Below, in pieces: positions 30,540 through 56,615 of a stretch of DNA of 64,000 bases. The notes under the pieces were generated by a model, which saw only the letters and a list, made by a program, of their open reading frames with translations, was not told where the DNA came from and did no database searches. Position numbers and translations under genes: made by a program. The stretch's first letter is position 1. The number at the start of each line of letters is the position of its first letter. The DNA is taken from the NCBI GenBank assembly GCA_949126835.1, contig OX421500.1:22557667-22621666 (forward strand), given 5' to 3'. This DNA comes from Anisus vortex. Taxonomy: Eukaryota; Mollusca; Gastropoda; Planorbidae.

Positions 30540-33085
30540 AGACTACTTTATATCACAACTACTACTACATACCACAATATCACAACTACAATCACAATAT
30601 CACAACTACTACTACATACCACAACTACCACTACATACCACAATATCACAACTGCTACTACATACCACAACTACCACTACATACCACAATATCACAACTA
30701 CTACTACATACCACAACTACTACTACATATCACAACTACTACTACATATCACAACTACTACTACATATCACAACTACTACTACATACCACAACTACCACT
30801 ACATACCACAATATCACAACTACTACTACATACAACAACTACTACTACATACCACAACTACTACTACATATAACAACTACTACTACATACCACAACTACT
30901 ACTACATATAAGAACTACTACTACATACCACAACTACTACTACATACCTCAACTATTGCTACATACCTCAACTACTACTACATACCACAACTATTGCTAC
31001 ATACCACAACTACTACTACATATAACAACTACTACTACATACCACAACTATTGCTACATACCATAACTACTACTACATATAACAACTACTACTACATATA
31101 ACATCTACTACTATATACCACAACTATTGCTACATACCACAACTACTACTACATACCACAACTACTACTACATATAACAACTACTACTACATACCACAAC
31201 TATTGCTACATAACACAACTACTACTACATACCACAACTACTACTACATACCACAACTACTACTACATACAACAACTATTGCTACATACCACAACTACTA
31301 CTACATACCACAACTACTACTACATATAACAACTACAATTACATATAATAACTACTACTACATACCACAACTACTACTACATATAACAACTACTACTACA
31401 TACCACAACTATTGCTACATACCACAACTACTACTACATATAACAACTACTACTACATATAAAAACTACTACTACATATAACAACTACTACTACATATAA
31501 CAACTACTACTACATATAACAACTACTACTACATACCACAACTACTACTACATATAACAACTACTACTACATACCACAACTATTGCTACATAACACAACT
31601 ACTACTACATATAATAACTACTACTACATATAACAACTACAACTACATATAACAACTACTACTACATATAACAACTACTACTACATATAACAACTACTAC
31701 TACATATAACAACTACTACTATATACACCAACTACTACTACATACCACAACTACTACTACATATAACATCTACTACTACATATAACAACTACTACTACAT
31801 ATAATAACTACTACTACATATAACAACTACTACTACATATAACAACTACTACTACATATAACAACTACTACTACATATAACAACTACTACTACATATAAC
31901 AACTACTACTATATACCACAACTACTACTACATAAAACAACTACTACTACATACCACAACTATTGCTACATACCACAACTACTACTACATATAACAACTA
32001 CTACTACATATAACAACTACTACTACATATAATAACTACTACTACATATAACAACTACTACTACATATAACAACTACTACTACATATAACAACTACTACT
32101 ACATATAACAACTACTACTACATATAACAACTACTACTACATATCACAACTACCACTACATATCATAACTACTACTACATATCACAACTACTACTACTAC
32201 ATACAAAAACTACTACACACCACAACTGCTACTACATTCCACAACTACTAGTACATATCACGTCAACCACTACATATCAAAACTACTACTACATATAACA
32301 ACTACTATTACATATCACAACTACTACTACATACCACAACTACTACTACTACATACCACAACTACTACATACCACAACTGCTACTACATACCACAACTAC
32401 TACTACATACCACAACTACTACTACATATAACAACTACTACTACATATAACAACTACTACTACATATAACAACTACTACTACATATAACAACTACTATTA
32501 CATATCACAACTACTACTACATACCACAACTACTACATACCACAACTGCTACTACATACCACAACTACTACTACATACCACAACTACTATTACATACAAC
32601 AACTACTACTACATACCACAACTACTATTACATACAACAACTACTACTACATACCACAACTACTGCTACATACCACAACTACTACATACCACAACTGCTA
32701 CTACATACCACAACTACTACTACATACCACAACTACTATTACATACAACAACTACTACTACATACCACAACTACTATTACATACAACAACTACTACTACA
32801 TACCACAACTACTATTACATACCACAACTACTACTACATACCACAACTACTATTACATACCACAGCTACTACTACATATCACAACTACTACTACATACCA
32901 CAACTACTATTACATACCACAACTACTACTACATACCACAACTACTGCTACATACCACAACTACTACTATATTCCACAACTACTACTACATACCACAACT
33001 ACTACTACATACCATAACTACTACTACATACCACAACTACTCTATACATATCACAACAACTACTACATACCACAAAAAATACTAT
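30540..33085. repeat. 19-bp satellite, left block
   Basis: Monomers of the TACTACTACATACCACAAC type, with TATAA-carrying (CATATAACAAC) and TATTGCTACATACC variants prominent. About 130 monomers. The plus strand is almost free of G. A 19-bp period makes a 57-bp, 19-residue pseudo-repeat in all three plus frames, so the long open frames are artefacts. Confidence 0.97.
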
Positions 33086-33089
33086 ATAC
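33086..33089. other. target-site duplication ATAC, left copy
   Basis: ATAC immediately before the 5' LTR; the same four bases follow the 3' LTR at 48727-48730. Confidence 0.8.
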
Positions 33090-33614
33090 TGTCATGTATA
33101 TTGTCTTTTCCAGAATTGGAGCCAGTAATGTTTATTCTTTTCCCCCCTCTCTCTTTTCTCACTACACACGATTTTGTGGGCGGGGCTTAGGCTTTCCGAT
33201 TGCCTGACGTTTAGTACGAAGACAAAAGATTCTAGGTAATGTTGGGATTCTGTGTTGACCCCAAATTCTCAGTGTGTCTGGGAACGTCTCATTATGTCTG
33301 CATAGGGAAGTTCCTATTGTTTTTTTTATGAGTTTAGTAATGATACCATGATTTTCACCCCTCCTAGTAATAGGTCTATCCCTTGTACCACTTGAATAGT
33401 ATTTAATGATTTGTTCGTCTGGAAGATGGAGCGTTTCAAAATATGTTCCTTTGAGGACGCTTGTGTTTGCACTATTTTATTCTAACTGTACATAATACAT
33501 ATATTGTATAATACTGAAACATAAATAATAATAACTAAAGTCTCCCCTAGGACTAACGAGAATTATCAGCAAGATCTTCACAGCTCTGGCCACAAGGGGA
33601 CTGTGGATGTAACA
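33090..33614 (+). repeat. 5' LTR (with internal deletion)
   Basis: Begins TGTCATGTATATTG, ends GATGTAACA. Compared with the solo LTR (702 bp) and the 3' LTR (709 bp when rejoined) it lacks about 180 bases between ATATTGTATA and ATACTGAAAC. The deletion starts in a short TGTATA direct-repeat context. Confidence 0.93.
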
Positions 33615-33619
33615 AAATT

Positions 33620-33637
33620 TGGTGGTCTCGCCCGGTA
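33620..33637 (+). promoter_or_regulatory. candidate primer binding site
   Basis: TGGTGGTCTCGCCCGG starts five bases after the 5' LTR and begins with the TGG expected to pair with a tRNA CCA end. I could not name the tRNA. Confidence 0.5.
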
Positions 33638-34091
33638 TAGTTGAGTTTTACTTTTCCTGACCTAGGATCAATAAAATTTGTTTTTCTCGTCTGGAATATT
33701 TCAGTTCTACTTTTCCTGACCTGGGATTGGAACACATTTTTTGGCTTGTACCGGAAAATTTGAGTTCTATTTTTCGGGACCTAGGACTAGAAATATTTTG
33801 TGACATTAGTAGTACTTAGAGCGGCATATTTGTGTTTCGTTTTCTAGGACTAATGAGGTTTGCAAACTAGTCAACAAACTAGTTTCGTTTTCTAGGACTG
33901 TGAAACTATTCTTTTTCAAAAGAGGAAAGAACTTGGTTTGCGTATTTATTCCTTTGGGAGTTTGAAGATTCCACGAAGTGTGTAATATTATATTGTGCAA
34001 ATTTCTGGACAAATCGTAAGTTGGAACTTTTATCTATTTTACCATACAATATATATTACTCTACTATCACAAATAATACGAACGCTATACT

Positions 34092-35642
34092 ATGGCTTCG
34101 AATATATCAAGTGAGGAACTTAACGCCATGTCATTTGCTGAACTAAAAGAATTAGCTGAGTCCTTTGGGATTGAGGCAGGACAGGCAAGACCAAATCGTA
34201 ATCGTTTGATCAAAAAAAATATGACATGTTTGAACGGGCAGAATGCCATGAACACTGGTAACGTGGTTGAAGTGGGCCAGAACGATATCAATGAAGGTAA
34301 TGTAACTCCCAGTGGGGGTGAGGTAAGAAGTGCCCATGGAGACGAGGCACAAAATATGTCATCTAGATCATCATACAATGATGAAGATGAAGGGTTGAGT
34401 AAAAATCTAAAATTCCAATTAGCTATGAAGAAAATGGAATTAGAAAGTATGGAAAGGAGAGAATTGGAAAGAATTAGGATAGAAACTGAAAGTAGAGAAA
34501 GGATAGAGATGTCACGCATGAACAGACCTGACCATCGTAGGGACAGTAATGGTATGGATATTAGCGCAATGAAGCAACACTTGCCTATATTCAGAGAAGA
34601 AGATGTTCAAGACTTCTTTTTGCTTTTTGAGAGGATAGCTGTAGATTATCAGTTCCCTAATGATAAGATGGCCTTATTGTTAAGATCAACTCTCAACAAA
34701 GGAAAAGCATTGGACGTAGTGTTGAGTTTAACACCCGAGGAAATAAATGACTATGAAGAGATCAAAGATAGGGTGTTAAAAAGTTATTCCCTGACACCAG
34801 AAAAATATAGAAAGCTATTTAGAGACAGAAAGAAGGCATATGATCAAACTCATGTAGACTTTTTGAGACAAAAGGAGAAAATGCTAGAACAGTGGCTAAG
34901 GTCACAGAATGTAAAAGAGTTTGATAAACTCAAGAACCTAATATTGTTTGAGGAATTCAATGATTGTATTCGAGTGGATATTAAAACTCACATCTCAGAC
35001 CGAGGGGTTGAAGATGTGCATGAAGCTGCTAGATTGGCAGATAACTATGCCATAATTCACGCCAGCATAAAGCCATATTATGCTGAAAAACCCAAAGTGC
35101 ACAAACCAGAGCCCAAGGAGGCTAGTAAACCAAAAATGACAAGTGAAAACAATAATAAGAACAGTAGTGTAAATGATAATAGTAACTTTGTTCATTTCAG
35201 GAAGCAGACAGATGTAAATAAAGCAAAGGTGGTATGTTTCAACTGCAAGAAAGAGGGCCACATGAAGAAAGATTGTTGGATCCTTACCAAGAAGCAAGGT
35301 GCTATTCTACACTGTGCCAGAGTGCAGAAAGACAGCAAGCAGACAGAAGAAGTGTGCAACACAGGGTCAAGAAACTCAAAAGAAATGCGGCCGACATCGC
35401 CCATAGTCGTGGAGTCGATGGTCTTTGAGAACAGCCAATCTAAGTTAAAAGAGAATAGCTGTACTCAATCTATTATGCTTTCAGAAGGCCGTGAGGAACA
35501 GATGGTTCCTGAAGTCCCGGAAAAGACGACCTATCCGATTTTCGACCCTTTGTCTACGAGGGGACAGTGTCGACAGAAGTCGATGTACTCAGCAAGAAGA
35601 AAATACAGATATTACGTGACACGGGTTCTGCTGTCAGCGTGA
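34092..35642 (+). CDS. gag: gag polyprotein of the Gmr1-like element
   Basis: A 516-codon open frame starting ATGGCTTCG after a 0.45-kb leader. Residues about 95-145 are charged, coiled-coil-like (EL.RIRIETESRERIEMSR). Residues about 155-345 form a retroviral-type capsid (PIFREEDVQDFFLLFERIA and the later LRSQNVKEFDKLKNLILFEE), the region related in the literature to vertebrate SCAN domains. A CCHC zinc knuckle CFNCKKEGHMKKDC spans residues 382-395. The last roughly 40 codons overlap the protease frame; pol lies in the -1 frame, whose last upstream stop is TGA at 35492. A -1 frameshift, programmed or mutational, between 35495 and 35642 would be needed to enter pol. Confidence 0.9.
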   Translation: MASNISSEELNAMSFAELKELAESFGIEAGQARPNRNRLIKKNMTCLNGQNAMNTGNVVEVGQNDINEGNVTPSGGEVRSAHGDEAQNMSSRSSYNDEDEGLSKNLKFQLAMKKMELESMERRELERIRIETESRERIEMSRMNRPDHRRDSNGMDISAMKQHLPIFREEDVQDFFLLFERIAVDYQFPNDKMALLLRSTLNKGKALDVVLSLTPEEINDYEEIKDRVLKSYSLTPEKYRKLFRDRKKAYDQTHVDFLRQKEKMLEQWLRSQNVKEFDKLKNLILFEEFNDCIRVDIKTHISDRGVEDVHEAARLADNYAIIHASIKPYYAEKPKVHKPEPKEASKPKMTSENNNKNSSVNDNSNFVHFRKQTDVNKAKVVCFNCKKEGHMKKDCWILTKKQGAILHCARVQKDSKQTEEVCNTGSRNSKEMRPTSPIVVESMVFENSQSKLKENSCTQSIMLSEGREEQMVPEVPEKTTYPIFDPLSTRGQCRQKSMYSARRKYRYYVTRVLLSA

Positions 35643-36256
35643 TTCTGGAGGGCAGAGTGCCGTTAACAGATGCCACCAGTACCGGTGAGTCTGTTGTGCT
35701 CAGAGGTGCTAGTATGGAGGCTGTGGAAGCTCCACTGCACAGAATAAAACTCGAGTCGGAGATGTTTACAGGTAACATTGTAGTGGAAGTGTGGCGCGCA
35801 CTACCCGTCAAAGGCGTTTCCATGATATTAGGAAATGACATTATGGGCGGCAGAGTCACTGTCGAGCCCATGGTTAAAGTGTTGGAGACGAAGATGGCGG
35901 AGGACACAAACCTACGTCCTGCCAATGAACGCCCAACATGTGCACTGACAAAAGCAATGCAGAAAAAGAAGTCGGTAAAGACTCCTGCTACGCCGTGTAG
36001 TGCAACGAAAGATGTGTTTGTCTGTTCTGAAGAAACACATGCGAATGAAACAGTGATAACAGAAACATCTGACATCGATTTAAGTGCTACGTTCTTTGCT
36101 GAACTAACAACTGGTGATGCAACAGAGAACGATAACGTTTTGTCACCAAAGCAGAAATTGGTGAAAGAACAATTGAATGACGAAGTAATAATGCAACTCA
36201 GAATGAAAGCTGTTGATGAAAGACTGCAGATGCAATGGCGGAATGTTTCTACATGA
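35495..36256 (+). CDS. pol: pol: aspartic protease region
   Basis: Open in the frame -1 to gag. LRDTGSAVSVILEG near 35610 is the protease active-site signature (DTG). The segment ends after a non-conserved, Thr/Lys-rich spacer. A frame change at about 36225-36240 separates it from integrase. Confidence 0.82.
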
Positions 36257-37587
36257 AAGATGAAGTGTTGATGAGAAAGTCGAAACCGCTCAACTCGGGT
36301 ACAAACGAGTGGGACAGTATTCACCAGATTGTAATACCTAAGTGCTATCGTCAAGATATACTGCGTATGGCACATGATCTTCCTTTCGCTGGTCACATGG
36401 GAGTCCGAAAAACGCACCACCGTATCCTCCCCTACTTCTACTGGCCAGGACTGAGAAGAGATGTCGAACAATACTGCAAGACTTGCCACGTATGCCAAAT
36501 GGTAGGACGACCTAACCAACGAATTCCTGTCGCTCCACTCCAGCCGATACCAGCGTTCGACGAACCATTCAGTCATATACTCATTGATTGCGTGGGCCCG
36601 TTGCAGAAAACAAAAGCCGGTTTCCAATACCTGCTCACGTTCATGTGTTCATCCACTCGCTTCCCGGAAGCCATTCCGTTGCGGAACATAACAACAGTGA
36701 AGGTGGTAGACGCCCTGACAAATTTCTTTATACGTAATGGCCTACCGAAGACAGTACAGTCCGACCAGGGGACTAACTTTACTTCGAACATTTTCAAACA
36801 AGTCATGGAACAATTAGGGATAAGCCATAGGCTATCAAGTGCCTATCATCCTGAGAGCCAGGGAGCTCTGGAAAGGTTTTATCAGACATTAAAATCGATG
36901 CTTAAAAAGTACTGTTATGAAAACGAGAAAGACTGGAATAAGGGTGTGCCTTATGTACTGTTCGCTGCAAGGGAGGCCACGCAGGAATCCCCGGGGTTTA
37001 GCCCAATCGAACTTGTGTATGGACACTCAGTCAGAGGTCCGTTGAAACTTCTACATGAAACTTGGCTAACGGACAGTGAACCGATTGGACTTTTGTCATA
37101 TGTAGATAAATTTAAAAATAGGCTTTATCATGCTTTTAACCATGTAAAGATTCATTTTCCACAGATGCAGAAGCGTATGAGATAGAACTATGACCGGAAA
37201 GCTACAGCTAGAACTTTTGCACCAGGTGACAAAGTTCTTGTGTTTCTACCTTTGCAAAATCAGCCTTTAAGTGCAAAGTTTAGTAGACCCTATGAGATAG
37301 AGTCAAAGCTTAGCGAGGTCAATTATTTGATAAAGACTCCTGACCGGAGACAAAAGCAGAGGGTATGTCATATTAATTTGCTTAAGCCCTATGTTACCAG
37401 GGAAAAGGGTAAACCAAGGGAGGCCCCCATGATTTCATTAGCTAGAGTCCCGACGGACTTATCTAGGATAGATCATAAGTTTGCAGAAAGCAAACTTAAT
37501 AATACAGAAGCCCTTAAGAGCTTAAATACAAAGCTAGACCATCTTCCGGTAGAAGATAAGGAAAAGATTATTGAGCTGGTACATTAA
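36235..37587 (+). pseudogene. pol: pol: integrase (one internal stop)
   Basis: The zinc-binding HHCC module includes GHMGVRKTHHRI, FYWPGLRRDVEQYC and KTCHVCQ. The catalytic core has the D,D-35-E residues in LIDCVGPL, QSDQGTNF and SQGALERFYQTLK. An in-frame TAG at 37183-37185 interrupts just before the C-terminal module (FAPGDKVLVFLP, then RVCHINLLKPY). A second in-frame stop TAA at 37585-37587 separates it from reverse transcriptase, with no frame change. Its position 5' of reverse transcriptase is the key structural oddity. Confidence 0.92.
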
Positions 37588-38237
37588 TATAAGTCACTGT
37601 TTACAGATGTTCCCAGGAGGACACATCTAATAGAACACGATGTAGTATTAACTGAGGGTACCAGGCCAATTAAACAGCATCCCATCAGACTTGAACATAT
37701 TAGAGCAGAGGTGAAGTATATGTTAGAAAATGACATAGTGGAAGAATGTGATAGCGAATGGTCTTCACCCTGTGTGTTGGTACCAAAAGCCGACTACACA
37801 CTGCGGTTTTGTACAGACTTTAGGAAATTAAATAATTTGACAAAGACTGACTCGTATTACATTCCTCGTATTGATGACCTCATTGATAAGATAGGTGACG
37901 CGACGTATGTGACAAAAATCGATCTTCTCTCCGCGTACTTTCAGATTCCTTTGACGCCACGGGCACAGGCAGTATCCGCCTTTGTGACACCTGACGGACT
38001 TTACAGGTATAAGGTCATGCCCTTCAGACTCCGTAATGCACCTGCGACGTTTCAAAGGCTTATAAACACCCTCACTCGCGGTATCTTCCAGTGTAATGCC
38101 TACCTCGACGACATAGTGGTGTATAGTACAGATTTCAAGACACATGTCAGTCAACTACGACACTTGTTTGAACGACTGAATGACGCCAATTTGACAATAA
38201 ACCTGGACATGCCACTATCGAGTATCTTGGACATGTA
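37588..38237 (+). pseudogene. pol: pol: reverse transcriptase
   Basis: Same frame as integrase. Motifs: SPCVLVPKADYTLRFCTDFR, KIDLLSAYFQIPL, VMPFRLRNAPATFQRLI and the catalytic YLDDIVVYS. The thumb is damaged: a short deletion with a frame change near 38205 removes the usual KCEF motif, and the frame resumes in EYLGHVVGGGKV. Confidence 0.92.
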
Positions 38238-38893
38238 GTGGGTGGTGGAAAGGTTAAACAAGTAAATGCTAAAATAGAAGCTATTCAGAATGTCCCAGTG
38301 CCACAGACAAGGAAACAGCTCCGTAGTTACCTGGGCAAGGCCGAGTATTATCGTAAATTTTGCCAGGACTTCTCTATGGTAGCTTGCCCCTTAACTGGCC
38401 TGCTAAAGAAGAACAATCGCTTTGTTTGGACTGACAAGTGCCAAAGGGCGTTTGATGAGTTGAAGTTAAGATTATCCAGGGCACCTATTTTGGTGACCCC
38501 GCGTTTTGATAGACCCTTTAAAATTGCAGTAGACGCTGCGATACTGGAATGGGAGCGGTGCTGACTCAGCAGGATGACCACGGAGAGGAGCACCCGGTGT
38601 GCGACCACTCACATAAATTCAATATCCATGAACGTAATTATAATACATGAGAGAAGGAACTTTTAGGCTTGATCCTAGCGTTAAAACAGTTTTATTTCCA
38701 TGTAAACAGCTCTGGGTACCCGACAGAAATACTGACCGACCACAACCCTCTGACTTTTCTCTCCAGGGTCAAGCAAAACCAGAGGCTTGTTAGATGGAGC
38801 TTATTCCTCCAAGCCTATGACTTAAACATAAAACACCTGAGGGGTAGGGACAACGTCACAGCTGATACTCTATCTCGGGTGCTACATGATTGA
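38238..38893 (+). pseudogene. pol: pol: RNase H
   Basis: The connection domain (RSYLGKAEYYRKFCQDFS, RFVWTDKCQRAFDELK) is followed by RNase H with FKIAVDA. A frame change near 38545 disrupts the usual LGMGAVL, and HERNYNT is followed by an in-frame TGA before EKELLGLILALKQF. DHNPLTFL and DTLSR complete it. No chromodomain or env frame follows. Confidence 0.9.
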
Positions 38894-40102: not shown

Positions 40103-40113
40103 GGGTGGGGGCG
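40103..40113 (+). promoter_or_regulatory. polypurine tract
   Basis: GGGTGGGGGCG directly before the 3' LTR, the expected plus-strand primer site, though not a pure purine run. Confidence 0.7.
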
Positions 40114-40621
40114 TGTCATGTATATTGTTTTTCCAAGAATTCGAACTCGCAATGTTTATTCTTTTCCCCCCTCTCTCTTTTCTCACTACACACGATTTTG
40201 TGGGCGGGGCTTAGGCTTTCCGATTGCCTGACGTTTAGTACGAAGACAAAAGATTCTAGGTAATGTTGGGATTCTGTGTTGACCCCAAATTCTCAGAGTG
40301 TCTGGGAACGTCTCATTATGTCTGCATAGGGAAGTTCCTATCGTTTTTGTTATGAGTTTAGTAATGATCCCATGATTTTCACCCCTCCTAGTAATAGGTC
40401 TATCCCTTGCACCACTTGAATAGTATTTAATGATTTGTTTGTCTGGAAGACGGAGAGTTTCAAAATATGTTCCTTTGAAACGCTTGTGTTTGCACTATTT
40501 TATTCTAACTGTTTATAATACATATATTGTATATATTGAACATATCACCTGAATTAAACTATCAACATCATTTACACTGAAGCTTCCTCGTCAAGTTACT
40601 ATTCTATTGTGTTGTCTACAA
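40114..40621 (+). repeat. 3' LTR, first part
   Basis: Begins TGTCATGTATATTG and matches the 5' and solo LTRs up to TTGTGTTGTCTACAA. It continues after the Helitron at 48526, exactly where the solo LTR reads on. Confidence 0.95.
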
Positions 40622-41057
40622 TCTATATAATAATAGCCCAAAGAAATGTATCTGTCATTCTGGAACGCTTAGCGACTTGGTTTCGAGAGTACAGACAGAT
40701 GACGCAATTGTCTGTTCTACGCATTCACCACTAGCGTGAAACCATTTTTTGTTTTGTTTTGTGTCGCAAGTGCGAAAATTAAGCACTAAATGACATCAGC
40801 ACTGAAACCACCGACCGTTTACGTCATTTTATGAAGTGCAAATAAAGATCCGGAATTTTACTTAATAAACAAAAGTAAGGTCATATATATCGAGTTGTTT
40901 GGTTGGTATAAACAAGTTCGGCCTAACCTGAATCACTTCTGGATCCCATAAATTATTAATCAAGTTTAAAGTTTGTATTTTGGGTATAGATATATCTATA
41001 TCATATCATATATATATATTATACTTGCGTTAAATCAAGTAAATATCACAAGATTTA

Positions 41058-41314
41058 ATGGATACACGTGATTATGGTGATGATGATCAGTCAGCACGCA
41101 GGCGCCGCTTAGCCATAGAGAGGAAGGAGAGATGGAAGGCTCGCCAAAGTCAAGAATTGCTGGAAAAAGTTGAAATAGAAGAAGCGAAATCAAAACGCCG
41201 AAAACTTCTATTAGAAACCCCACTACAGTCTCAAGCACGTCGAATGGCAAATGCCGAATGTCAAAATAAGAGGCGAGAATCTGAAACCTCCGATGAAACA
41301 AAAGCACGTCGAAT
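41058..41314 (+). pseudogene. Helitron N-terminal protein, first part
   Basis: ATG at 41058. It encodes a basic, Arg/Glu-rich segment that ends in a 22-residue repeat (RRMANAECQNKRRE, SETSDETKA). It is interrupted at 41314 by the TIR element. The frame continues unchanged at 46394 because the insert plus one AT copy is 5079 bases, a multiple of three. Confidence 0.8.
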
Positions 41315-41984
41315 GGGGACTATGCAGAAGTATTTTCCGGTCACGTGATGAGGATTAGATAGATTGATAAACATGGAAGTGCTCATTCATTTTACTGTAG
41401 CTGGATGCTCACATTTTGACTTAAAATCAAGACGCAGTGAAGTTAAAATATGTTTTCATCTATTTTCGCTGATAGATACAAGCTTCTTAAATGCATGTCA
41501 AAAGACGACGCCAATATTTTGTTGCAAAACAACCTAATATTATGTTCCTAAAACATCGAATAAAATGACTTCCGTGTTTTAAATTTTCACTGCCTTCAAT
41601 GGTTAACCACGGTAAGTCCATACAATATACAACGGCATAGAGTTTTTTGCTTAAGTCTTCAAACTTTTTTTATCTATAATTATATACGCCTAATACTCAA
41701 TTCATTAATTATAAATATCGTTTCACATTTTTAGTAGCTCGTAGCTTAGCAGAGCTAAAGCCTAAAGCGGCCTAGCCAAAATATTATAAGTATAATAATA
41801 ATAACTACTTAAACTTTAAACCTAGCCTAATAATTTAATAAACTAATAAAATAAGTAAATAAACCGACTAACAAGAAGAATATGGTAATATAGACAAATA
41901 TAGTTAATTTTTAGATGATAATAATAAAGAATATTGTTGCATGTAGGCCGATCATTCTATGCCTGCATATAATAATAATAATAT

Positions 41985-42310
41985 TTGTATAGCGCTGCCA
42001 ACAAACATAATGTAAGCTCAGAGCGCGTTTAACATACAACTAAGAATACGGATATTACCCTAGCCCAGGTGACAGAGCTAAATTGATGATTAAAAAAAGA
42101 CAAAACAAATAAATGTAGCATTAACCGACCCAACCCATAAATAAGACAGTAAGTTTCTAAAGCATGTTAAATGTTATCTAAGGTAAATATTGAAATAATG
42201 AGTTTTTAAGTTCTGTTTGAAAGTAACAGTAGAGCTTGTTCGCCTCAGTTGAATGGGAAGTTGATTCCACACCTTCGGACCGGATACTGAGAAGGCTCTA
42301 AGGCCAACGG
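41985..42310. repeat. dispersed repeat fragment
   Basis: AATAATAATAATATTTGTAT followed by AGCGCTGCCAAC, AGCTCAGAGCGCG, and later GGGAAGTTGATTCCACACCT. This order (ATT-rich start, GCGCT motif, the GGGAAGTTGATTCC block) resembles a repeat I associate with many marine invertebrate genomes. It has no coding capacity. Confidence 0.4.
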
Positions 42311-42314
42311 TATA

Positions 42315-42340
42315 TAGGCTATTATAATTATAATAGCCTA
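42315..42340. repeat. 26-bp perfect palindrome
   Basis: TAGGCTATTATAA joined to its exact reverse complement. Confidence 0.95.
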
Positions 42341-44024
42341 CTCACTACTCTACAGTCTACTAGTCCTATGCTTTTTAATTTTAATACATAGGCCTATATT
42401 AAAATTATATTCTCTATGATAGGCCCTATGCCTATATGCCATGCAAATCATATGCCCTACAGTGTAGGCATATTACTTTGTTATTGATTGGCTATTTAAA
42501 TATTTCAAATCATTTTTATAATAGTTAAGACTACTAAATATAGTCCAGTAGGCATATAATATCTTAAGTTAATAAGCTCTATTAGAATAGCCATAAATAA
42601 TTAGCCTAATTATAATAGTCTAATTCCAATTATTTTTTTTTCAGTAATTTAGTATAATACTTTATAACAATTGAACACTTCTAAGAAGTGATTTACACCA
42701 TGACCAAAGTCATTAATTTAATTAGTATTAGCCTCATTGTCCCTAAAACCGGATAAGCATATAAATAAGTATGTATGTAGGCATAGGCCTACTCTTTTAC
42801 TTGTAAATTAATAATTGAGCAGTATTTTTGCATTTAATGTGTAATTTATTATTAGTAATATTAGCTTGCATTAATTGGGTAGGCCTATAATATAGGATGG
42901 ATGAGGGGGGGGGGGGGGGGGGATTGGGTTGAAGCTACAATATAATCTGATAGTCTAGGCCTACAACCCCTACAATATAATCTGATAGTCTAGGCCTATG
43001 TTGTCTGTGGATCATCATCAATAGAAATAGGACTGATTATAGTGAATGGTAGTGAATCTATTTATAACTATAAAAGCTATTTATTTATAAATAATTATAA
43101 ATTCTCTGTATATCTTTAAATTTAACACATTGGTACATGGTATAGTCATCATTTTTGTTTACTTATTTCAGATAGTCATCAACTGGAGCAGCTCCAATTG
43201 TATTCTCTCACATATACCACTTAATACCCATATACCAGCAGGCCTACAAAAAAAGACATCTTATGAATTTTGGTAATTTTTTAAATTTTAAATATATAAT
43301 TTATAAATTATAATGATTACCGATACAGTGTTGTGTTATCTGAATTGTATTTAGTTGAAATTATTACTATAATAGTATTATATAAAATTATTCACATACA
43401 GTAGCTCAATGTATGGATATTTTTATATTTTTTAGCACACTTAAATTGTACTGTATTAATATGTTGGAAACTGTGTACTGGTAGTAAATAGTAGTGGGTA
43501 TAAGAGTAACTGAAAAGTTATGATGTAAATAAATACATGTTAAAAAAAAATATCTTATTATTATTATTTTCATATGTAGATTGAATGTGTCAACTACTGG
43601 AATTGAATGTTATTGTGGATCATCAGATGCAAAGTGATGTCAGCAGCAAGTCATGGCAAAAAGAATTGTATCAGTAATTGACACTGCTAAATGAGATTAA
43701 AATAAGTCAACTTATTGTTCACAATATCACATTGGAGTTTTCAATTCGCTTACTGTCTGTTAAAGGAGAATTTCTGTTTTGATTGGTTAAATGACATGAC
43801 GTTAAATATTTTGAAAATAGGAAAACTATCTGACATCATCCATGAATGTTTTAATTTATTGCAAAAAAAAATAATAATAAAAAAAATATATATTATTAGC
43901 ATTCTTTTTATAATTTATAGTATTTTATTTTATATTAATATTAAACCATGTTGAATATCATGCCAGAATATGAAGGCCTATGGTAAAAATAATTGAAAAT
44001 GCATTAGTATTGGTAATTTGTAAA

Positions 44025-44280: not shown

Positions 44281-44469
44281 TTATTGTAGTGTAGATTGTC
44301 AGAGTAGGCACAAGGTAATATTTATGTCATGTAGAATTGTTTAATTCTTAGCATTAGCAAATAGGGTGCCCTTATTTTGGTGGACATAAGTTTTGGTGCA
44401 TGCTGTGCCCTGAATAACAGTCTTTAAACTCATGTTTTGGTGCATGATGTGCCCTGAATGTTTTGGTGC

Positions 44470-44790
44470 AGACATGGGGCCAGGTGGCAGACAGCACGTT
44501 CTGCTCGCATTCCGAAGGTTCTGAGTTAGAGTTTTTGTGAAGGCTAGAATTTATTATCTGGTCTGAAGGATGTCCCTGAGTCTATCCAGCTCTGATGGGT
44601 ACCAGTAGATGACTTTACTGTGGGTATATTAAAGGTGCCTGGGAATTGTGTTGGCCACACATTCCCAAGTATGCTGTGGCCACCAAAAGTGATGACAGCT
44701 GCTTCACAGGCTCCATGGATCAATTCGATCAGATGGGATACTTTAATTTGTTGTAGACTGATGTCATGCATGAATGTGGTCTATGGGTGC
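44470..44790 (+). mobile_element. SINE copy, degenerate
   Basis: The body matches the SINE at 3680: GTGAAGGCTAGAATTT, TGATGGGTACC, GGGAATTGTGTTGGCCACAC and ACAGCTGCTTCACAG. The A box (GGCCAGGTGGCAGACAGC) and B box are decayed. It lies inside the 5.08-kb transposon. Confidence 0.75.
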
Positions 44791-44829
44791 CTTCCACTGC
44801 ATCAATAAGTCCTAATATGGGCTTGCAAC

Positions 44830-46300
44830 AAGTTGACTTCATTCCTCATTCACATTCTGCTTCAACTTCATTGACCTAATATCAAAGGAGAAAAGAAATT
44901 AACATTTCATCAAATATATATTGTCAGGCAATTTTTTTTTACTTCAATACCAGTACAATTAAACGTTAAAATATTTTATGTTAATTTTTAATACCCTGTA
45001 ACACAGAAATGCATGTCCTTTAGTTTACTTAGGTATTGAGAGAATGAAATTAGGCCTACATTTCAATCATTAAACTGTTTATTCTATTAGATATGCTACA
45101 GACTACTAGCTCAACAAGCATCAATATTTACATTGGTCGACCTATATTTAATACTTTTACTTTATCTGCCCCAGTCCTGCATGTTTTAATTTACTTATAA
45201 TGATCGAGTTGTGAGATTAATCAAAACAGTATTGCAAATTGCATCATATATAGTATGGTCATAGTATAGTAATATAATAGCCAACTACTTAGGCCTACTA
45301 CACTATAATTATATAAAAGCACAAGCATGCAAATTGACAAATATAAGCTTATTAGCCCTTTATCTAATCTCAATGACAATTACTGAATCAGTTAGGCCAA
45401 GGTCTAAAATGGCCTCAATTAATATAGGGCCTATATATTATATTATGTCTAATATGTAGGCTATATTATGTGAAACAAGGTAGGCTAACCCCGATCCTAA
45501 TTATAAATCATCATACATCATAGGTCATAGGCCTACTTGATAGTAGTTAGTAGCCTAAATGATAAATGAATTTTAATAAAATAATTCAAATAATTTTAAA
45601 ATAGAAGTATCACTTAGGCCTATTATTAATTATTATATTAAAATAATATCAGTTAAAAGAAGAGAACAGCCAGCCAACATATTACTAATGGAATGGCTAG
45701 GACAGTTTACTAATATTAATACTGATATTAGGCTAGCCCATTCTAAGTCTAAGCCTATGCCCTAAATGCCGATTATTATTAGGCCTATGAGTATGACTCT
45801 ATGACTATGAGTACTATGACTACACTATGACTACACTATGAGTTCTATGAGCCTATATAGGACATAAACATAGTCATAGGCTACGACTATGACATGATAT
45901 TTGACGTTGCTTAAGAATGGGACAAGGTAAAAGTGGAAGACAATAAAAAAAAAGAACACCTACCTTTCGTGAATCGTCAATTATACTGCTCACATTATAT
46001 GCAGACCATTTCTTGATTGCTACTTCCAATCATTCATGAATAGTAAGCCTAAACTGTCGTAAACCAGAAAATCTCTCATAACACTCATAAGTCATAACTC
46101 ATAACATGTAAACATGACTCGACTAGTCTAGTTAATAAGTAGTTTAAAATTAATGTATATCAGCAAGTACGCTTTAAACAAAGCCTGGTCCTTATTTATT
46201 ACTTGTACATGAGTCACTATCACAAGCCTGTGTGGTGATTTAGACACCACAATAATCTAGAATGTCTTAAAATGATATTTTTACGAATCATTTCTCTCTA
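44830..46300. other. AT-rich interior of the 5.08-kb transposon
   Basis: Low-complexity TA- and CTATGA-rich text with repeated AGGCCTA words. No coding signal seen. Confidence 0.5.
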
Positions 46301-46393
46301 TTCCAAGATGTGTAAAACGCCATGTTTTTTCTTAGTCTAAGCCGCATCACGTGACCAAACATCTATCTCTAAGGACTTGTGCATAGTCCCCAT

Positions 46394-47055
46394 TGCAGAT
46401 GCCGAACGTCAAAATAAGAGGCGAGAATCTGAAACTTCCGATGAAACAAAAGCACGTCGAATTGCAAATGCCGAATGTCAACATAAGAGGCGAGAATCGG
46501 AAACGCCCGAGGAAATAAAAGCACGAAAAACTGCAGTTGCCAAATGTCAGCGTTTAGCACAAGTGCAACTAAACCATCAGATTCAAAAAGATGCTATTCA
46601 CTTCAGAGAGAACTGCGTTGTTGCACACAATTTCGGTCCAATGACGGAAATCTGCCAATTCTGTCAATCAAAAAACTTCAAGGCTGAGCTACCATCTGAC
46701 AAAAAATTCACCAGTTGTTGCCGCAAAGGAAAAGTTAAGCTGCCCAAACCCAAGGTTGAAAACGATGTCGAGCTGGCTTTAATATCCCGAGTTTCTTCGC
46801 CGACTTCTGACTGACACAACTGATCCAGATAGTAGACATTTTCGCGAGAACATAAGATCGTACAACAACGCAGTGTCATTCGCTTCAATGGGTGCCAAAA
46901 TCATCCACGTGCAAGGAAGAAGTCCATACGTTTTCAAGATACATGGTCAGACGTACCACAAGACGTCTCATCTTCAGCCATTAACACCACAGGCACCACA
47001 ATATGCCCAACTCTACGTACTGGACAGTACTCAAGCCACTAATAAATATTTAAAT
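46394..47055 (+). pseudogene. Helitron N-terminal protein, second part
   Basis: Continues the frame of 41058-41314 with further 22-residue RRESET repeats. A zinc-binding segment follows (EICQFCQSKNFKAE and TSCCRKGKVKLP). The frame stops at 46814, and one frame change restores HFRENIRSYNNAVSFASMGA, YVFKIHGQTYH and PQYAQLYVLD. These blocks are the standard N-terminal region of Helitron proteins preceding Rep. It ends at 47055, and nothing of Rep or helicase follows. Confidence 0.82.
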
Positions 47056-47378
47056 TAGAAAGAGTAATATAAACGTTTCTTAACTGTCTTTAGAATTATC
47101 AACTTATATTATCCTTATCCCCACTTCTTTCCCTACATAGAACAAAAATTGATTTTTAAAAAAGCGGGTTTATGGGATGAAAAGTACAGATATTTAAAAC
47201 ATTTATAAAAGAAATACAACAGTTTAGGAACTGTAACTTGATATGAAATTGAATATTGCTTTTTGTGGACAAATTTTAGCCTATATATTAGTCTATCTTC
47301 ACGCTCCCCCCACCCACCCACCAACACACCAATTTCCCTATGGCTATAATGTCTGGCCTCACACGAGTTGTGGTAAAA

Positions 47379-47555
47379 TATCCCCTTTAGACCAATTTGA
47401 TCCATAGGGAACATGAAGCAGTGTTCACAAGTTTCTGTGGCCACAATACCCAGCCCCCTTTATTTGTTTCTAACGAATGGCAGGTACCCATCAGAGCTTG
47501 GTAGGCTCAGAGACACTTTTTAGAGCCAGGAACAAACCCTACCCTAGGCCTATAT
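47379..47555 (-). mobile_element. SINE copy, reverse orientation
   Basis: Complement of the SINE body: AAGCAGTGTTCACAAGTTTC, TGTGGCCACA, GGTACCCATCAGAGCT and CTCAGAGACAC. Inside the Helitron. Confidence 0.7.
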
Positions 47556-47657
47556 CAGGTAGGCCTACGTCAGGCGAACGCTTGAATTCATAAACAGTTG
47601 TGATAATGTCTGGTATCAAACTAATTGTGATAAATATGATAACAATTATTTCTAAAA

Positions 47658-47862
47658 AAGTATCCCGTCGGACCAAAATGATCCAGAGGGCCGGTGAAGC
47701 AGCGTTCACCAGTTTCTGTGGGCACGGTATACTAGGTGATTGTGTGGCAGGCACTATGCTCAGCCGCCTTTACTTTACCCCAACTAAGGTCAGAACTGGG
47801 TAGACTCAGGGACACCCGCCAGACCCGGGAAAAAATCCTAGCCTGCACCAGAATTCGAAAAG
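47658..47862 (-). mobile_element. SINE copy, reverse orientation
   Basis: GTATCCCGTCGGACCAAAAT, GTGAAGCAGCGTTCACCAGT, ACTCAGGGACACCC and CGGGAAAAAATCCTAGCCT. It includes the 3' end of the family, but the promoter boxes are degraded. Inside the Helitron. Confidence 0.75.
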
Positions 47863-48525
47863 TAATCATTATGCTTATGAGAAATCTCAATTCATACATT
47901 GTCTTTGCAACGGCTGTTGATTCATTGCAAAGGAAATACATCGCAATTTGGACACTTCAGAAATCTTCTCAGAATGCAATAGCTAAAAGCCTTTAAATCC
48001 AAATTTATCAACTTGGTTCGTCAACATTACCCTATTATCTATGACTTCAGCCATTGCCAATAATTCTGGCTTTTGTGATAGCTATTATCAAATTTTAATA
48101 ACAGACATGTCGAAGTTTTCATCTATGTCTATAGTCAACGTTTATCACTTTTTAAGGTAAAAATGTCCCAAACATGTAGAAAATAAACACTCAACAGACA
48201 ACTAGACCCTATTCATGGGGAACAAGAAATTGCTTTTTAGGACAAGTTTTATCTGAATTTATTACACTGAAAAAAGACAGTTAAAGCAAACTATGTTTAT
48301 ATTTTATTTATCTCAGTAATTCTATAACAATTTCAATATCATCAATTAAAATCGTCATTTCTTAAATTTAAATTTAAAACCATGACTTAGGGCTACTTTA
48401 CTTCCAGCTCCTGTTTCCCGACTTTTGAAAAAGCATACCAAATATATAAACACAATTCTAAAAATAATAAAAACACATAAAACTAAATTCTTTACCCCCG
48501 TGGTTTCCCCGCGGGCTATTTCTAG

Positions 48526-48726
48526 TACTATAATATTTATCTACTACTCTAACGTCAAGGAAAGGAACTGTTAGAACACAAATCCTGAGTTTGTGCCCAG
48601 GACTATAAGAAGAGTTCGTGTAATACTGAAACATAAATAATAATAACTAAAGTCTACCCTAGGACTAACGAGAATTATCAGCAAGATCTACACAGCTCTG
48701 ACCACAAGGGGATTGTGGATGTAACA
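48526..48726 (+). repeat. 3' LTR, second part
   Basis: Resumes at TACTATAATATTTATCTACT and ends GGATGTAACA, matching the solo LTR 3' portion. Followed by ATAC (48727-48730), the right target duplication. Confidence 0.95.
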
Positions 48727-51700
48727 ATACAATAAATACTACTACATGCCACAAGTACTACTACATATCACAACTACTACTACATACCTGAACTACTACT
48801 ACATATCACAACTACTACTACATATCACAACTACTACTATATATCACAACCACTACTACTACATACAAAAACTACTACAAACCACAACTGCTACTACATA
48901 CCACAACTGCTACTACATATCACAACTGCTACTACATATCACAACTACTACTACATATCACAACTACTAATACATACCACAACTGCTACTACATACCACA
49001 ACTACTACTACATACCACAACTACTACTACATACCACAACTACTACTACAGACAACAACTACTACTACATATCACAACTACTACTACATATCACAACTAC
49101 TACTACATACTACAACTACTACATACCACAACTACTACTACATATCACATCTACTACTACATACCACAACTACTACTACATACCACAACTGCTACTACAT
49201 ACCACAACTACTACTACATATCACATCTACTACTACATACCACAGCTACTACTACATATCACATCTACTACTACATACCACAGCTACTACTACATACAAC
49301 AACTACTACATATCACAACTGCTACTACATATCACAACTACTACTACATATCACAACTACTAATACATACCACAACTGCTACTACATACCACAACTACTA
49401 CTACATACCACAACTACTACTACATACCACAACTACTACTACAGACAACAACTACTACTACATATCACAACTACTACTACATATCACAACTACTACTACA
49501 TACTACAACTACTACATACCACAACTACTACTACATATCACATCTACTACTACATACCACAACTACTACTACATACCACAACTGCTACTACATACCACAA
49601 CTACTACTACATATCACATCTACTACTACATACCACAGCTACTACTACATACAACAACTACTACATACCACAACTACTACTACATATCACATCTACTACT
49701 ACATACCACAACTACTACTACATAGCACAACTACTACTACATATAACTACTAATACTACATATCACAACTAATACTACATACCACTACTACTACTACATA
49801 TCACATCTACTACTACATACCACAACTACTAATACATATCACAACTTCTACTACATATCACAACTACTACTACATATCACAACTACTACTACATATCACA
49901 ACTACTACTACATATCACAACTACTACTACATATCACATCTACTACTACATACCACAGCTACTACTACATACAACAACTACTACATACCACAACTACTAC
50001 TACATATCACATCTACTACTACATACCACAACTACTACTACATATAACTACTACTACTACATATCACAACTACTAATACATATCACAACTTCTACTACAT
50101 ATCACAACTACTACTACATACCACAACTACTACTACATATCACATCTACTACTACATACCACAACTACTACTACATATAACAACTACTACTTAATATCAC
50201 AACTACTACTACATAGCACAACTACTACTACATATAACTACTACTACTACATATCACAACTACTAATACATATCACAACTTCTACTACATATCACAACTA
50301 CTACTACATACCACAACTACTAATACATATCACATCTACTACTACATACCACAACTACTACTACATATAACAACTACTACTTAATATCACAACTACTACT
50401 ACATAGCACAACTACTACTACATATAACTACTACTACTACATATCACAACTACTAATACATATCACAACTTCTATTACATATCACAACTACTACTACATA
50501 TCACAACTACTACTACATATCACAACTACTACTACATATCACAACTACTACTACATATCACAACTACTACTACATATAACAACTACTACTACATATCACA
50601 ACTACTACTACAAACCACAACTACTACTACATATAACAACTACTACTACATATCACAACTACTACTACATACCACAACTACTAATACATATAACAACTAC
50701 TACTACATATCACAACTACTACTACATATAACAACTACTACTACATATCACCACTACTACTACATATCACAACTACTACTACATATCACAACTACTACTA
50801 CATATTACAACTACTACTACATACCACAACTACTACTACATATCACAACTACTACTACATATCACAACTACTACAACATACAACAACTAGTACATATCAC
50901 AACTACTACTACATACCACAACTACTACTACATATCACAACTACTACTACATACCACAACTACTACTACATATAACAACTACTACTACATATCACAACTA
51001 CTTCTACATACAACTACTACTACATATAACAACTACTTCTACATATAACAACTACTACTACATATCACAACTATTACTACATATCACAACTACTTCTACA
51101 TATCACAACTACTACTACATATCACAACTACTACTACATATCACAACTACTACTACATATCACAACTACTACTACATATAACAACTACTTCTACATATCA
51201 CAACTACTACTACATATCACAACTTCTACTACATATCACAACTACTTCTACATATAACAACTACTACTACATATCACAACTACTACTACATATCACAACT
51301 ACTACTACATATCACAACTACTACTACATATAACAACTACTACTACATATCACAACTACTACTACATATCACAACTACTACTACATATAACAACTACTAC
51401 TACATATCACAACTACTACTACATATCACAACTACTACTACATATCACAACTACTACTACATATCACAACTACTACTACATATCACAACTACTACTACAT
51501 ACTACAACTACTACATACCACAACTACTACTACATATCACATCTACTACTACATACCACAACTACTACTACATACCACAACTGCTACTACATACCACAAC
51601 TACTACTACATATCACATCTACTACTACATACCACAACTACTACTACATACAACAACTACTACATACCACAACTACTACTACATATCACATTTACTACTA

Positions 51701-54700
51701 CATACCACAACTACTACTACATATAACAACTACTACTTAATATCACAACTACTACTACATAGCACAACTACTACTACATATAACTATACTACTACATATC
51801 ACAACTACTAATGCATATCACAACTTCTACTGCATATCACAACTACTACTACATATCACAACTACTACTACATATCACAACTACTACTACATATCACAAC
51901 TACTACTACATATCACAACTACTACTACATATCACAACTACTACTACATATCACAACTACTACTACATATCACAACTACTACTACATATCACAACTACTA
52001 CTACATATCACAACTAATACTACATATCACAACTACTACTACATATCACAACTACTACTACATATCACAACTACTACTTCATATCACAACTACTACTACA
52101 TATCACAACTACTACTACATATCACAACTACTACTACATATAACAACTACTTCTACATATCACAACTACTACTACATATCACAACTACTACTACATATCA
52201 CAACTACTACTACATATCACAACTACTACTACATATCACAACTACTACTACATATCACAACTACTATTACATATCACAACTACTACTACATATCACAACT
52301 ACTGCTACATATCACAACTACTACTACATATCACAACTACTACTACATATCACAACTACTACTACATATCACAACTACTACTACATATCACAACTACTAC
52401 TACATATCACAACTACTACTACATATCACAACTACTACTACATATCACAACTACTACTACATAGCACAACTACTACTACATATAACAACTACTTCTACAT
52501 ATCACAACTACTACTACATATCACAACTACTACTACATATCACAACTACTACTACATATCACAACTACTACTACATATCACAACTACTACTACATATCAC
52601 AACTACTACTACATATAACAACTACTACTACATATCACAACTACTACTACATATCACAACTACTACTACATATCACAACTACTACTACATATCACAACTA
52701 CTAATACATATCACAACTTCTATTACATATCACAACTACTACTACATATCACAACTACTACTACATATCACAACTACTACTACATATCACAACTACTACT
52801 ACATATCACAACTACTACTACATATAACAACTACTACTACATATCACAACTACTACTACAAACCACAACTACTACTACATATAACAACTACTACTACATA
52901 TCACAACTACTACTACATATCACATCTACTACTACATACCACAGCTACTACTACATACAACAACTACTACATACCACAACTACTACTACATATCACATCT
53001 ACTACTACATACCACAACTACTACTACATATAACTACTACTACTACATATCACAACTACTAATACATATCACAACTTCTACTACATATCACAACTACTAC
53101 TACATACCACAACTACTACTACATATCACATCTACTACTACATACCACAACTACTACTACATATAACAACTACTACTACATATCACAACTACTACTACAT
53201 ACCACAACTACTACTACATATAACAACTACTACTACATATCACAACTACTTCTACATACAACTACTACTATATATAACAACTACTTCTACATATAACAAC
53301 TACTACTACATATCACAACTATTACTACATATCACAACTACTTCTACATATCACAACTACTACTACATATCACAACTACTACTACATATCACAACTACTA
53401 CTACATATCACAACTACTACTACATATAACAACTACTTCTACATATCACAACTTCTACTACATATCACAACTACTTCTACATATAACAACTACTACTACA
53501 TATCACAACTACTACTACATATCACAACTACTACTACATATCACAACTACTACTACATATAACAACTACTACTACATATCACAACTACTACTACATATCA
53601 CAACTACTACTACATATAACAACTACTACTACATATCACAACTACTACTACATATCACAACTACTACTACATATCACAACTACTACTACATATCACAACT
53701 ACTACTACATATCACAACTACTACTACATACTACAACTACTACATACCACAACTACTACTACATATCACATCTACTACTACATACCACAACTACTACTAC
53801 ATACCACAACTGCTACTACATACCACAACTACTACTACATATCACATCTACTACTACATACCACAACTACTACTACATACAACAACTACTACATACCACA
53901 ACTACTACTACATATCACATTTACTACTACATACCACAACTACTACTACATATAACAACTACTACTTAATATCACAACTACTACTACATAGCACAACTAC
54001 TACTACATATAACTATACTACTACATATCACAACTACTAATGCATATCACAACTTCTACTGCATATCACAACTACTACTACATATCACAACTACTACTAC
54101 ATATCACAACTACTACTACATATCACAACTACTACTACATATCACAACTACTACTACATATCACAACTACTACTACATATCACAACTACTACTACATATC
54201 ACAACTACTACTACATATCACAACTACTACTACATATCACAACTACTACTACATATCACAACTACTACTACATATCACAACTACTACTACATATCACAAC
54301 TACTACTACATATCACAACTACTACTACATATCACAACTACTACTACATATAACAACTACTACTACATATCACAACTACTACTACATATCACAACTACTA
54401 CTACATATCACAACTACTACTACATATCACAACTACTACTACATATCACAACTACTACTACATACTACAACTACTACATACCACAACTACTACTACATAT
54501 CACATCTACTACTACATACCACAACTACTACTACATACCACAACTGCTACTACATACCACAACTACTACTACATATCACATCTACTACTACATACCACAA
54601 CTACTACTACATACAACAACTACTACATACCACAACTACTACTACATATCACATTTACTACTACATACCACAACTACTACTACATATAACAACTACTACT

Positions 54701-56615
54701 TAATATCACAACTACTACTACATAGCACAACTACTACTACATATAACTATACTACTACATATCACAACTACTAATGCATATCACAACTTCTACTGCATAT
54801 CACAACTACTACTACATATCACAACTACTACTACATATCACAACTACTACTACATATCACAACTACTACTACATATCACAACTACTACTACATATCACAA
54901 CTACTACTACATATCACAACTACTACTACATATCACAACTACTACTACATATCACAACTACTACTACAAATCACAACTACTACTACATATCACAACTACT
55001 ACTACATATCACAACTACTACTACATATCACAACTACTACTACATATCACAACTACTACTACATATCACAACTACTACTACATATCACAACTACTACTAC
55101 ATATAGCAACTACTACTACATATAACAACTACTTCTACATATCACAACTACTACTACATATCACAACTACTACTACATATCACAACTACTACTACATATC
55201 ACAACTACTACTACATATCACAACTACTACTACATATCACAACTACTACTACATATCACAACTACTACTACATATCACAACTACTACTACATATCACAAC
55301 TACTACTACATATCACAACTACTACTACATATCACAACTACTACTACATATCACAACTACTACTACATATCACAACTACTACTACATATCACAACTACTA
55401 CTACATATCACAACTACTACTACATATCACAACTACTACTACATATCACAACTACTACTACATATCACAACTACTACTACATATCACAACTACTACTACA
55501 TACCACAACTACTACTACATATCACAACTACTACTACATATCACAACTACTACAACATACAACAACTAGTACATATCACAACTACTACTACATACCACAA
55601 CTACTACTACATATCACAACTACTACTACATACCACAACTACTACTACATATAACAACTACTACTACATATCACAACTACTACTACATATCACAACTACT
55701 ACTACATATCACAACTACTACTACATATCACAACTACTACTACATATCACAACTACTACTACATATCACAACTACTACTACATATCACAACTACTACTAC
55801 ATATCACAACTACTACTACATATCACAACTACTACTACATATCACAACTACTACTACATATCACAACTACTACTACATATCACAACTACTACTACATATC
55901 ACAACTACTACTACATATCACAACTACTACTACATATCACAACTACTACTACATATCACAACTACTACTACATACCACAACTACTACTACATATCACAAC
56001 TACTACTACATATCACAACTACTACAACATACAACAACTAGTACATATCACAACTACTACTACATACCACAACTACTACTACATATCACAACTACTACTA
56101 CATACCACAACTACTACTACATATAACAACTACTACTACATATCACAACTACTACTACATATCACAACTACTACTACATATCACAACTACTACTACATAT
56201 CACAACTACTACTACATATAACAACTACTTCTACATATCACTACTACTACTACATATCACAACTACTACTACATATCACAACTACTACTACATATCACAA
56301 CTACTACTACATATAACAACTACTACTACATATCACAACTACTACTACATATCACAACTACTACTACATATAACAACTACTACTACATATCACAACTACT
56401 ACTACATATCACAACTACTACTACATATCACAACTACTACTACATATAACAACTACTACTACATATCACAACTACTACTACATATCACAACTACTACTAC
56501 ATATAACAACTACTACTACATATCACAACTACTACTACATATCACAACTACTACTACATATCACAACTACTACTACATATCACAACTACTACTACATACC
56601 ACATCTACTACTATA
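48727..56615. repeat. 19-bp satellite, right block, with higher-order repeats
   Basis: About 415 monomers, mostly TACTACTACATATCACAAC. G is almost absent from the plus strand. Higher-order structure: a marked block (ACTACAACTACTACATACC through CTTCTACTGCATATC) recurs at about 51502, 53731 and 54465, giving offsets of 2229 and 734 bases. Another marker (CTACAACATACAACAACTAG) recurs at 50871, 55550 and 56022. A roughly 393-bp duplication lies at 49109/49502. The array resumes directly after the retrotransposon. Confidence 0.97.

What the first reader, a model, noticed from the sequence alone, without database searches (positions are those of the whole stretch)
30540..56615. Four-level nested insertion stack resolvable to the base
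A 19-bp satellite is split by a gypsy element (ATAC duplication). Its 3' LTR is split by a Helitron (A|T target, exact healing against the solo LTR). The Helitron ORF is split by a 5.08-kb inverted-repeat transposon (AT duplication, frame restored on removal). That element contains a SINE-like copy. The order of events can therefore be read directly, with a clean pre-insertion reference for several levels.
Basis: seen in the sequence. Interest (0 to 1): 0.8.

Follow-up and report, generated by a model that had tools for sequence, protein, structure and literature searches.

The report
Nested transposons inside an animal satellite
A stretch of simple repeat in an animal genome was interrupted by a virus-like jumping gene, which was itself interrupted by a second and that by a third; the cuts are unusually clean, but such nesting is common and only part of the order of events can be read from it.

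Summary
The anatomy is real. A 19-bp satellite is split by an LTR element (33090-48726, ATAC duplication). Its 3' LTR is split by a Helitron (40622-48525, A|T target). The Helitron's reading frame is split by a 5,077-bp inverted-repeat element (41315-46391, AT duplication) that contains a diverged SINE-like copy. Three register tests support the three main junctions: the 19-bp satellite phase, the solo LTR at 8178-8879 (own CTAC duplication), and a 69-bp tandem repeat in the Helitron frame.

The parts can be named more exactly. The LTR element is Gmr1-like gypsy (SCAN domain in gag, integrase before reverse transcriptase). The Helitron is a deletion derivative keeping only the N-terminal region of its protein. 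The inner element has ISL2EU marks (GG ends, AT duplicated within AATT) but no detected transposase.

The chronology is over-claimed. Nesting shows what inserted into what, not that each insertion happened here: the inner element may have ridden in with the Helitron, and the SINE with the inner element. The 5' LTR cannot serve as a control, because it lacks about 185 bp holding the Helitron site. All parts are known kinds, and nested-insertion dating is a standard method. The genome could not be searched for second copies.

The parts
30542..33075 (+). left part of the 19-bp satellite array
   Evidence: TRF
48737..56613 (+). right part of the 19-bp satellite array, with long near-identical internal duplications (among others at lags 2229, 734 and 472 bp)
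   Evidence: TRF; lag analysis
33086..33089 (+). target duplication ATAC, left copy
48727..48730 (+). target duplication ATAC, right copy
   Evidence: satellite register kept with one copy
33090..33614 (+). 5' LTR (525 bp), lacking about 185 bp that include the site homologous to the Helitron insertion
   Evidence: alignment to solo LTR
34077..35642 (+). gag open frame with SCAN domain and CCHC zinc knuckle
   Evidence: Pfam SCAN E 4.6e-9, zf-CCHC E 1.5e-5
35513..36256 (+). protease-like frame
   Evidence: Pfam RVP E 0.0051, below the curated cut-off
36220..37587 (+). integrase (H2C2, rve; C-terminal domain in the next open piece, after a stop at 37183-37185)
   Evidence: Pfam; frames
37588..38238 (+). 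reverse transcriptase frame, downstream of integrase
   Evidence: Pfam RVT_1 E 1.3e-24; 4ol8 E 1e-40 and Ty3-G 7q5b E 7.2e-40 among solved structures
38184..38893 (+). RNase H pieces in broken frames
   Evidence: Pfam RT_RNaseH_2 and RT_RNaseH
40114..40621 (+). 3' LTR, left part
48526..48726 (+). 3' LTR, right part
40622..48525 (+). Helitron, TC...hairpin...CTAG, between A and T
41043..41312 (+). Helitron frame, first piece (69-bp / 23-residue repeats begin here); no Pfam match, not compared with Helraiser
46395..46811 (+). Helitron frame, second piece; matches Helraiser residues 32-152
   Evidence: E 5.5e-8
46783..47058 (+). Helitron frame, third piece after a frame break; matches Helraiser residues 162-250
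   Evidence: E 2.7e-23
48497..48515 (+). Helitron 3' hairpin (7-bp stem, 5-nt loop); the last 10 nt of the element, CTAG included, follow it
41315..46391 (.). 5,077-bp inverted-repeat element, ISL2EU-like ends, no transposase detected; AT copies at 41313-41314 and 46392-46393
44480..44744 (+). diverged SINE-like copy inside the inverted-repeat element (edges approximate)
47657..47859 (-). SINE-like copy in the Helitron itself
47375..47545 (-). second SINE-like stretch in the Helitron itself; the BLAST match covers 47375-47444 only (78.6%), the rest is by alignment
8178..8879 (+). solo LTR of the same family, own target duplication CTAC; unfilled reference for the Helitron site (8678|8679)

Best explanation
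A stack of ordinary transposition events. A Gmr1-like gypsy retrotransposon integrated into a 19-bp satellite (4-bp duplication). A rolling-circle Helitron, reduced to the N-terminal part of its protein, inserted between A and T in the 3' LTR. A non-autonomous ISL2EU-like cut-and-paste element inserted at an AATT in the Helitron's 69-bp repeat, with AT duplicated. That element holds a diverged, probably tRNA-type SINE copy. Shown: the junctions, the duplications and what sits in what. Inferred: the transposition mechanisms, from the families' known biology. Left open: whether the two innermost events happened here or were carried in.
For: Junctions and duplications. Register tests on three levels. 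Gag SCAN and integrase-before-RT order; one relative with SCAN upstream of integrase (P0067) and one with integrase upstream of RT (P0088), of four looked at. Helraiser matches and 3' hairpin. ISL2EU marks as described in PMC4482050 (passages): AT duplication in A|AT|T, TIR usually beginning GG.
Against: No second copy of the Helitron or of the inner element was seen: with up to 3 mismatches their end motifs occur in the window only at these ends, apart from one weak chance-level match. No transposase domain was found in the 16 frames of 50 aa or more inside the inner element; shorter remnants are not excluded. Four joins tie in the LTR scan, and the solo LTR has T, not A, left of the site. 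The 5' LTR lacks the control site. The gag frame found no homologue at E 0.001 in the large protein search, and the protease match is below its cut-off.
Confidence: 0.9

Rival explanations
1. The Helitron arrived already loaded: the ISL2EU-like element (with or without its SINE copy) was inside the Helitron when it moved into this LTR, so that inner event is older than the Helitron's insertion here. This is a sub-case that the best explanation leaves open.
For: Nesting alone cannot tell the two apart; Helitrons copy whatever lies between their ends (general knowledge). The Helitron carries two other SINE-like stretches.
Against: None direct; a 7.9-kb load is larger than a 2.8-kb one.
Confidence: 0.25
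2. Assembly artefact: 40.6-48.5 kb was misjoined.
For: Flanking satellite arrays are a typical place for assembly errors (general knowledge); no reads were available.
Against: The outer and inner edges carry family-specific termini and target patterns, and three unrelated registers close. A misjoin is not expected to produce these.
Confidence: 0.03
3. The Helitron was already in the LTR of the parent gypsy copy and was copied into both LTRs; the 5' copy was later lost with the missing block of about 185 bp.
For: The 5' LTR lacks a region that contains the site.
Against: It needs an LTR enlarged by 2.8 or 7.9 kb to be reverse transcribed, and a deletion that removes all of the Helitron without trace. 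The solo LTR of the family has no Helitron.
Confidence: 0.04

Closest known systems
Nested transposons used for relative dating (TinT; transposon interruption analysis; PMC3014933 and PMC2517846, passages seen)
   Same: Element-in-element insertions; in TinT they are read as a relative order.
   Different: Those methods count many insertions; this is one locus, with base-level references for three levels. Carriage of a passenger by a Helitron or DNA transposon weakens the order here.
Gmr1 clade of Ty3/gypsy (PMC8220671 passages; PMC3424704 passages; PMC4131045 passages)
   Same: Integrase upstream of RT; SCAN-type gag.
   Different: Frames broken; interrupted by a Helitron.
Helitron / Helraiser (7lcc; PMC6544945 passages)
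   Same: TC and CTRR ends, 3' hairpin, A|T target, N-terminal protein homology.
   Different: Endonuclease and helicase region absent; interrupted.
ISL2EU group of PHIS transposons (PMC4482050 passages)
   Same: AT duplication in AATT, ends beginning GG, about 5 kb.
   Different: No transposase or YqaJ frame detected; a single copy seen.

Membership tests
Gmr1-like Ty3/gypsy | RT of Ty3/gypsy type | tested here: met
   best solved structures 4ol8 (E 1e-40; listed only as RT/RNase H, Ty3 by my recall) and Ty3-G Gag-Pol 7q5b (E 7.2e-40)
Gmr1-like Ty3/gypsy | integrase upstream of RT | tested here: met
   integrase 36220-37587, RT 37588-38238
Gmr1-like Ty3/gypsy | SCAN-type gag | tested here: met
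   SCAN E 4.6e-9, 36.4 bits against cut-off 27
Gmr1-like Ty3/gypsy | position in RT/integrase tree | not tested
Helitron | 5' TC, 3' CTRR preceded by hairpin | tested here: met
Helitron | insertion between A and T without duplication | tested here: met
   A 40621, T 48526, gapless against the solo LTR; four tied joins, resolved by the termini; the solo LTR itself reads T|T
Helitron | Rep (HUH) and helicase domains (autonomous copies) | tested here: not met
   the homologous frame stops at Helraiser residue 250 of 1,496 and only 1,467 bp remain to the 3' end; 5 of the open frames there show no Pfam domain above cut-off; so a non-autonomous Helitron
ISL2EU | AT target duplication within A|AT|T | tested here: met
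   definition from PMC4482050 passages
ISL2EU | TIR beginning GG | tested here: met
   GGGGACTATGCA at both ends, 16 of the first 17 bp equal
ISL2EU | DDE transposase with THAP, and YqaJ protein (autonomous copies) | tested here: not met
   16 of 16 frames of 50 aa or more inside the element scanned with Pfam, none of these domains; best match DUF4017 E 0.0024, below cut-off. Filed as ISL2EU-like by its ends only
tRNA-derived SINE | tRNA-related head with pol III B box | tested here: inconclusive
   copy at 3.7 kb has a B-box-like match with 1 mismatch in the head; the copy in the stack has none there (recalled motif); ARAGORN and Rfam find nothing
tRNA-derived SINE | flanking target duplication | tested here: not met
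   no flank repeat above chance for the copy in the stack

The most novel reading that the evidence does not exclude
The 7.9-kb Helitron moved as a composite: a rolling-circle element mobilised a whole ISL2EU-like transposon together with its SINE copy, so the stack records one transposition of three nested elements and not three successive local insertions.
Probability: 0.2. Interest if true: 0.4.

Novelty: new member of a known kind. Interest (0 to 1): 0.25.

Why it matters
It is a clean teaching case: three insertion levels with internal unfilled-site references that need no second genome. It also shows the limit of such stratigraphy, since elements that carry passengers do not record when the passenger came. 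It adds a Gmr1-like element with a SCAN gag whose best-scoring relatives with an organism name, in the integrase search, are bivalve proteins.

Tried and rejected
Searching the window's own genome for second copies was the decisive test. The genome search was never reachable, so no paralogous or allelic empty site outside the window was examined. IMG/VR scans for the Helitron end, the Helitron protein and the integrase gave no relatives, as expected for animal DNA. A 55-residue frame at 42174-42341 (-) looks to me like the C-terminus of a LINE protein (recalled); Pfam and the protein search found nothing, so I do not claim it. The gag frame found no homologue at E 0.001. Pfam gave no match above its cut-offs for the Helitron pieces. 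I considered LTR-based dating: 5' against 3' LTR gives K2P 0.0453 over 524 sites, but I have no species-specific rate, and 15 against 6 private changes (two-sided binomial 0.078) may hint at unequal evolution or conversion, so I give no age. The first satellite phase test was noisy near the junction (left phases 15 in 5 of 6 windows, 14 in the last; right 14 in 6 of 6), so I repeated it as an offset scan. The MetaSINE paper is not held.
Full report
Observation. The window is animal-type DNA rich in repeats. TRF finds a 19-bp array at 30542-33075 and again at 48737-56613. Between them lies an LTR element. Its 5' LTR is 33090-33614 and its 3' LTR is in two parts, 40114-40621 and 48526-48726, with ATAC on both outer sides. 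A solo LTR of the same family is at 8178-8879, with its own duplication CTAC.

Three register tests. (1) Satellite: joining the flanks with one ATAC keeps the 19-bp period. Of 51 offsets tried, 0 and +19 score best (0.614 of 83 comparisons), -19 next (0.542), then 0.446; keeping both ATAC copies (offset -4) gives 0.253. The monomers next to the junction are degenerate, so an earlier phase test was noisy there. (2) LTR: the two halves of the 3' LTR align to the solo LTR without a gap at the junction, which corresponds to solo 8678|8679. Among 2,116 possible joins, the proposed one ties for best with three neighbours, so the alignment fixes the site to four positions and the TC/CTAG termini fix it to the base. 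The solo LTR reads T|T where this copy reads A|T. (3) Helitron frame: the protein has 69-bp (23-residue) repeats. Skipping 5,079 bp puts consecutive repeats in register at 94% identity; of 80 lengths tried, the next best gives 42%. This is stronger than 'frame restored', because the neighbouring repeat units are themselves unfilled copies of the site.

The LTR element. Gag has a SCAN domain (E 4.6e-9) and a zinc knuckle. A protease match is below Pfam's cut-off. Integrase (36220-37587) precedes reverse transcriptase (37588-38238) and RNase H. The best solved structures for the RT are 4ol8 (E 1e-40; Ty3 by my recall) and Ty3-G Gag-Pol (E 7.2e-40). Integrase before RT in a gypsy element is the mark of the Gmr1 clade (PMC8220671, passages). 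SCAN domains are derived from Gmr1-like gag (PMC3424704, passages), and over half of frog Gmr elements carry them (PMC4131045, passages). The integrase search found 1,456 proteins and listed 120. I looked at four: one has SCAN upstream of integrase and one has integrase upstream of RT. Five of the 120 listed bear an organism name: Mytilus coruscus and Solemya velum (bivalves, the two best-scoring of them) and three fish. A mollusc or similar animal is therefore plausible but not shown. The gag frame itself found no homologue at E 0.001. The frames are broken by stops and shifts; I describe them and mended nothing.

The Helitron. It starts with TC at 40622 and ends with CTAG at 48525. A 7-bp hairpin is followed by the last 10 nt of the element, and the element sits between A and T. 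These are marks listed in PMC6544945 (passages). Two open pieces match the bat Helitron protein Helraiser, residues 32-152 and 162-250 of 1,496, in two frames; the first piece was not compared. After the last piece only 1,467 bp remain, too little for the endonuclease and helicase region. So it is a non-autonomous deletion derivative quite apart from the inner insertion. It holds two further SINE-like stretches on the minus strand, one supported by BLAST over about 200 bp and one over 70 bp.

The inner element. Its ends are GGGGACTATGCA(G/C)AAGT, 16 of 17 bp equal. The unfilled site is CGAATTGC, with AT duplicated. The ISL2EU group is described as having AT duplications in A|AT|T, ends usually beginning GG and a mean autonomous length near 4.8 kb (PMC4482050, passages). 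All 16 frames of 50 aa or more that lie inside it (listed) were scanned with Pfam, and none shows the expected domains; the best match is DUF4017 at E 0.0024, below its cut-off. I file it as ISL2EU-like by its ends only. The SINE-like copy inside is about 70-77% identical to two other copies in the window; its edges and duplication are not resolved.

Order of events. Gypsy into satellite is as firm as sequence alone can make it. Helitron into this LTR after integration is very probable, but the usual proof is unavailable: the 5' LTR lacks a block of about 185 bp (solo 8589-8773) that contains the homologous site. For the inner element and the SINE copy, nesting shows what went into what, not where or when. 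A Helitron or a cut-and-paste element moves with its contents (general knowledge). LTR divergence is K2P 0.0453 between the two LTRs, and 0.0864 and 0.1134 to the solo LTR. Without a rate this is no date.

Later history. The right satellite half has long near-identical internal duplications (up to 1,155 bp at lag 2229; others at lags such as 734 and 472), while the longest in the left half is 258 bp. The left half is also only a third as long, so it offers less room for them. Part of the array seems to have kept amplifying on one side. That this began after the gypsy insertion is possible but not shown.

Verdict. This is a real and clean example of a known kind. Dating by nested insertions is standard (PMC3014933 and PMC2517846, passages). 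I did not see this locus or this stack in the listings of eight paper searches, which were by topic, not by sequence, and cover only the held open-licence library. Interest is modest.

Noticed in passing
57660-60829 (TSD 57652-57659 / 60830-60837): A 3,170-bp element with ends TAGGGCGTCCCA and a 7-of-8 matching flank duplication ATGGG(C/T)AG, holding a 580-aa minus-strand frame (58425-60167) with no Pfam family and no NCBIfam or solved-structure match better than chance level. Ends and duplication fit hAT transposons (recalled pattern); the protein is unassigned.
   Followed up: partly
48737-56613: Right satellite half has near-identical blocks at lags 2229, 734, 472 and others (up to 1,155 bp at >=97% in 200-bp windows); the longest in the shorter left half is 258 bp.
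   Followed up: partly
33090-33614: The 5' LTR lacks a block of about 185 bp that both other LTRs have, with 2 bp (TA) of microhomology at the edges by eye.
   Followed up: partly
21992-26636: Two direct duplications of about 1 kb: 21992-23066 with 24519-25603 (90%) and 23503-24523 with 25607-26636 (88%).
   Followed up: no
16408-16482 and 17188-17297: Inverted clusters of a GACGTTTTGGCGCG-type unit about 0.7 kb apart.
   Followed up: no
44025-44093 and 44212-44280: Exact 69-bp direct repeat inside the inner element, 187 bp apart.
   Followed up: no
42174-42341 (-): 55-residue frame that resembles a LINE protein C-terminus (recalled); no match in Pfam or in the protein search.
   Followed up: partly
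28186-29706: 506-aa open frame with a weak EGF-like match (Pfam EGF_STAB1-2, E 1.5e-5, 25.7 bits against a cut-off of 27).
   Followed up: no
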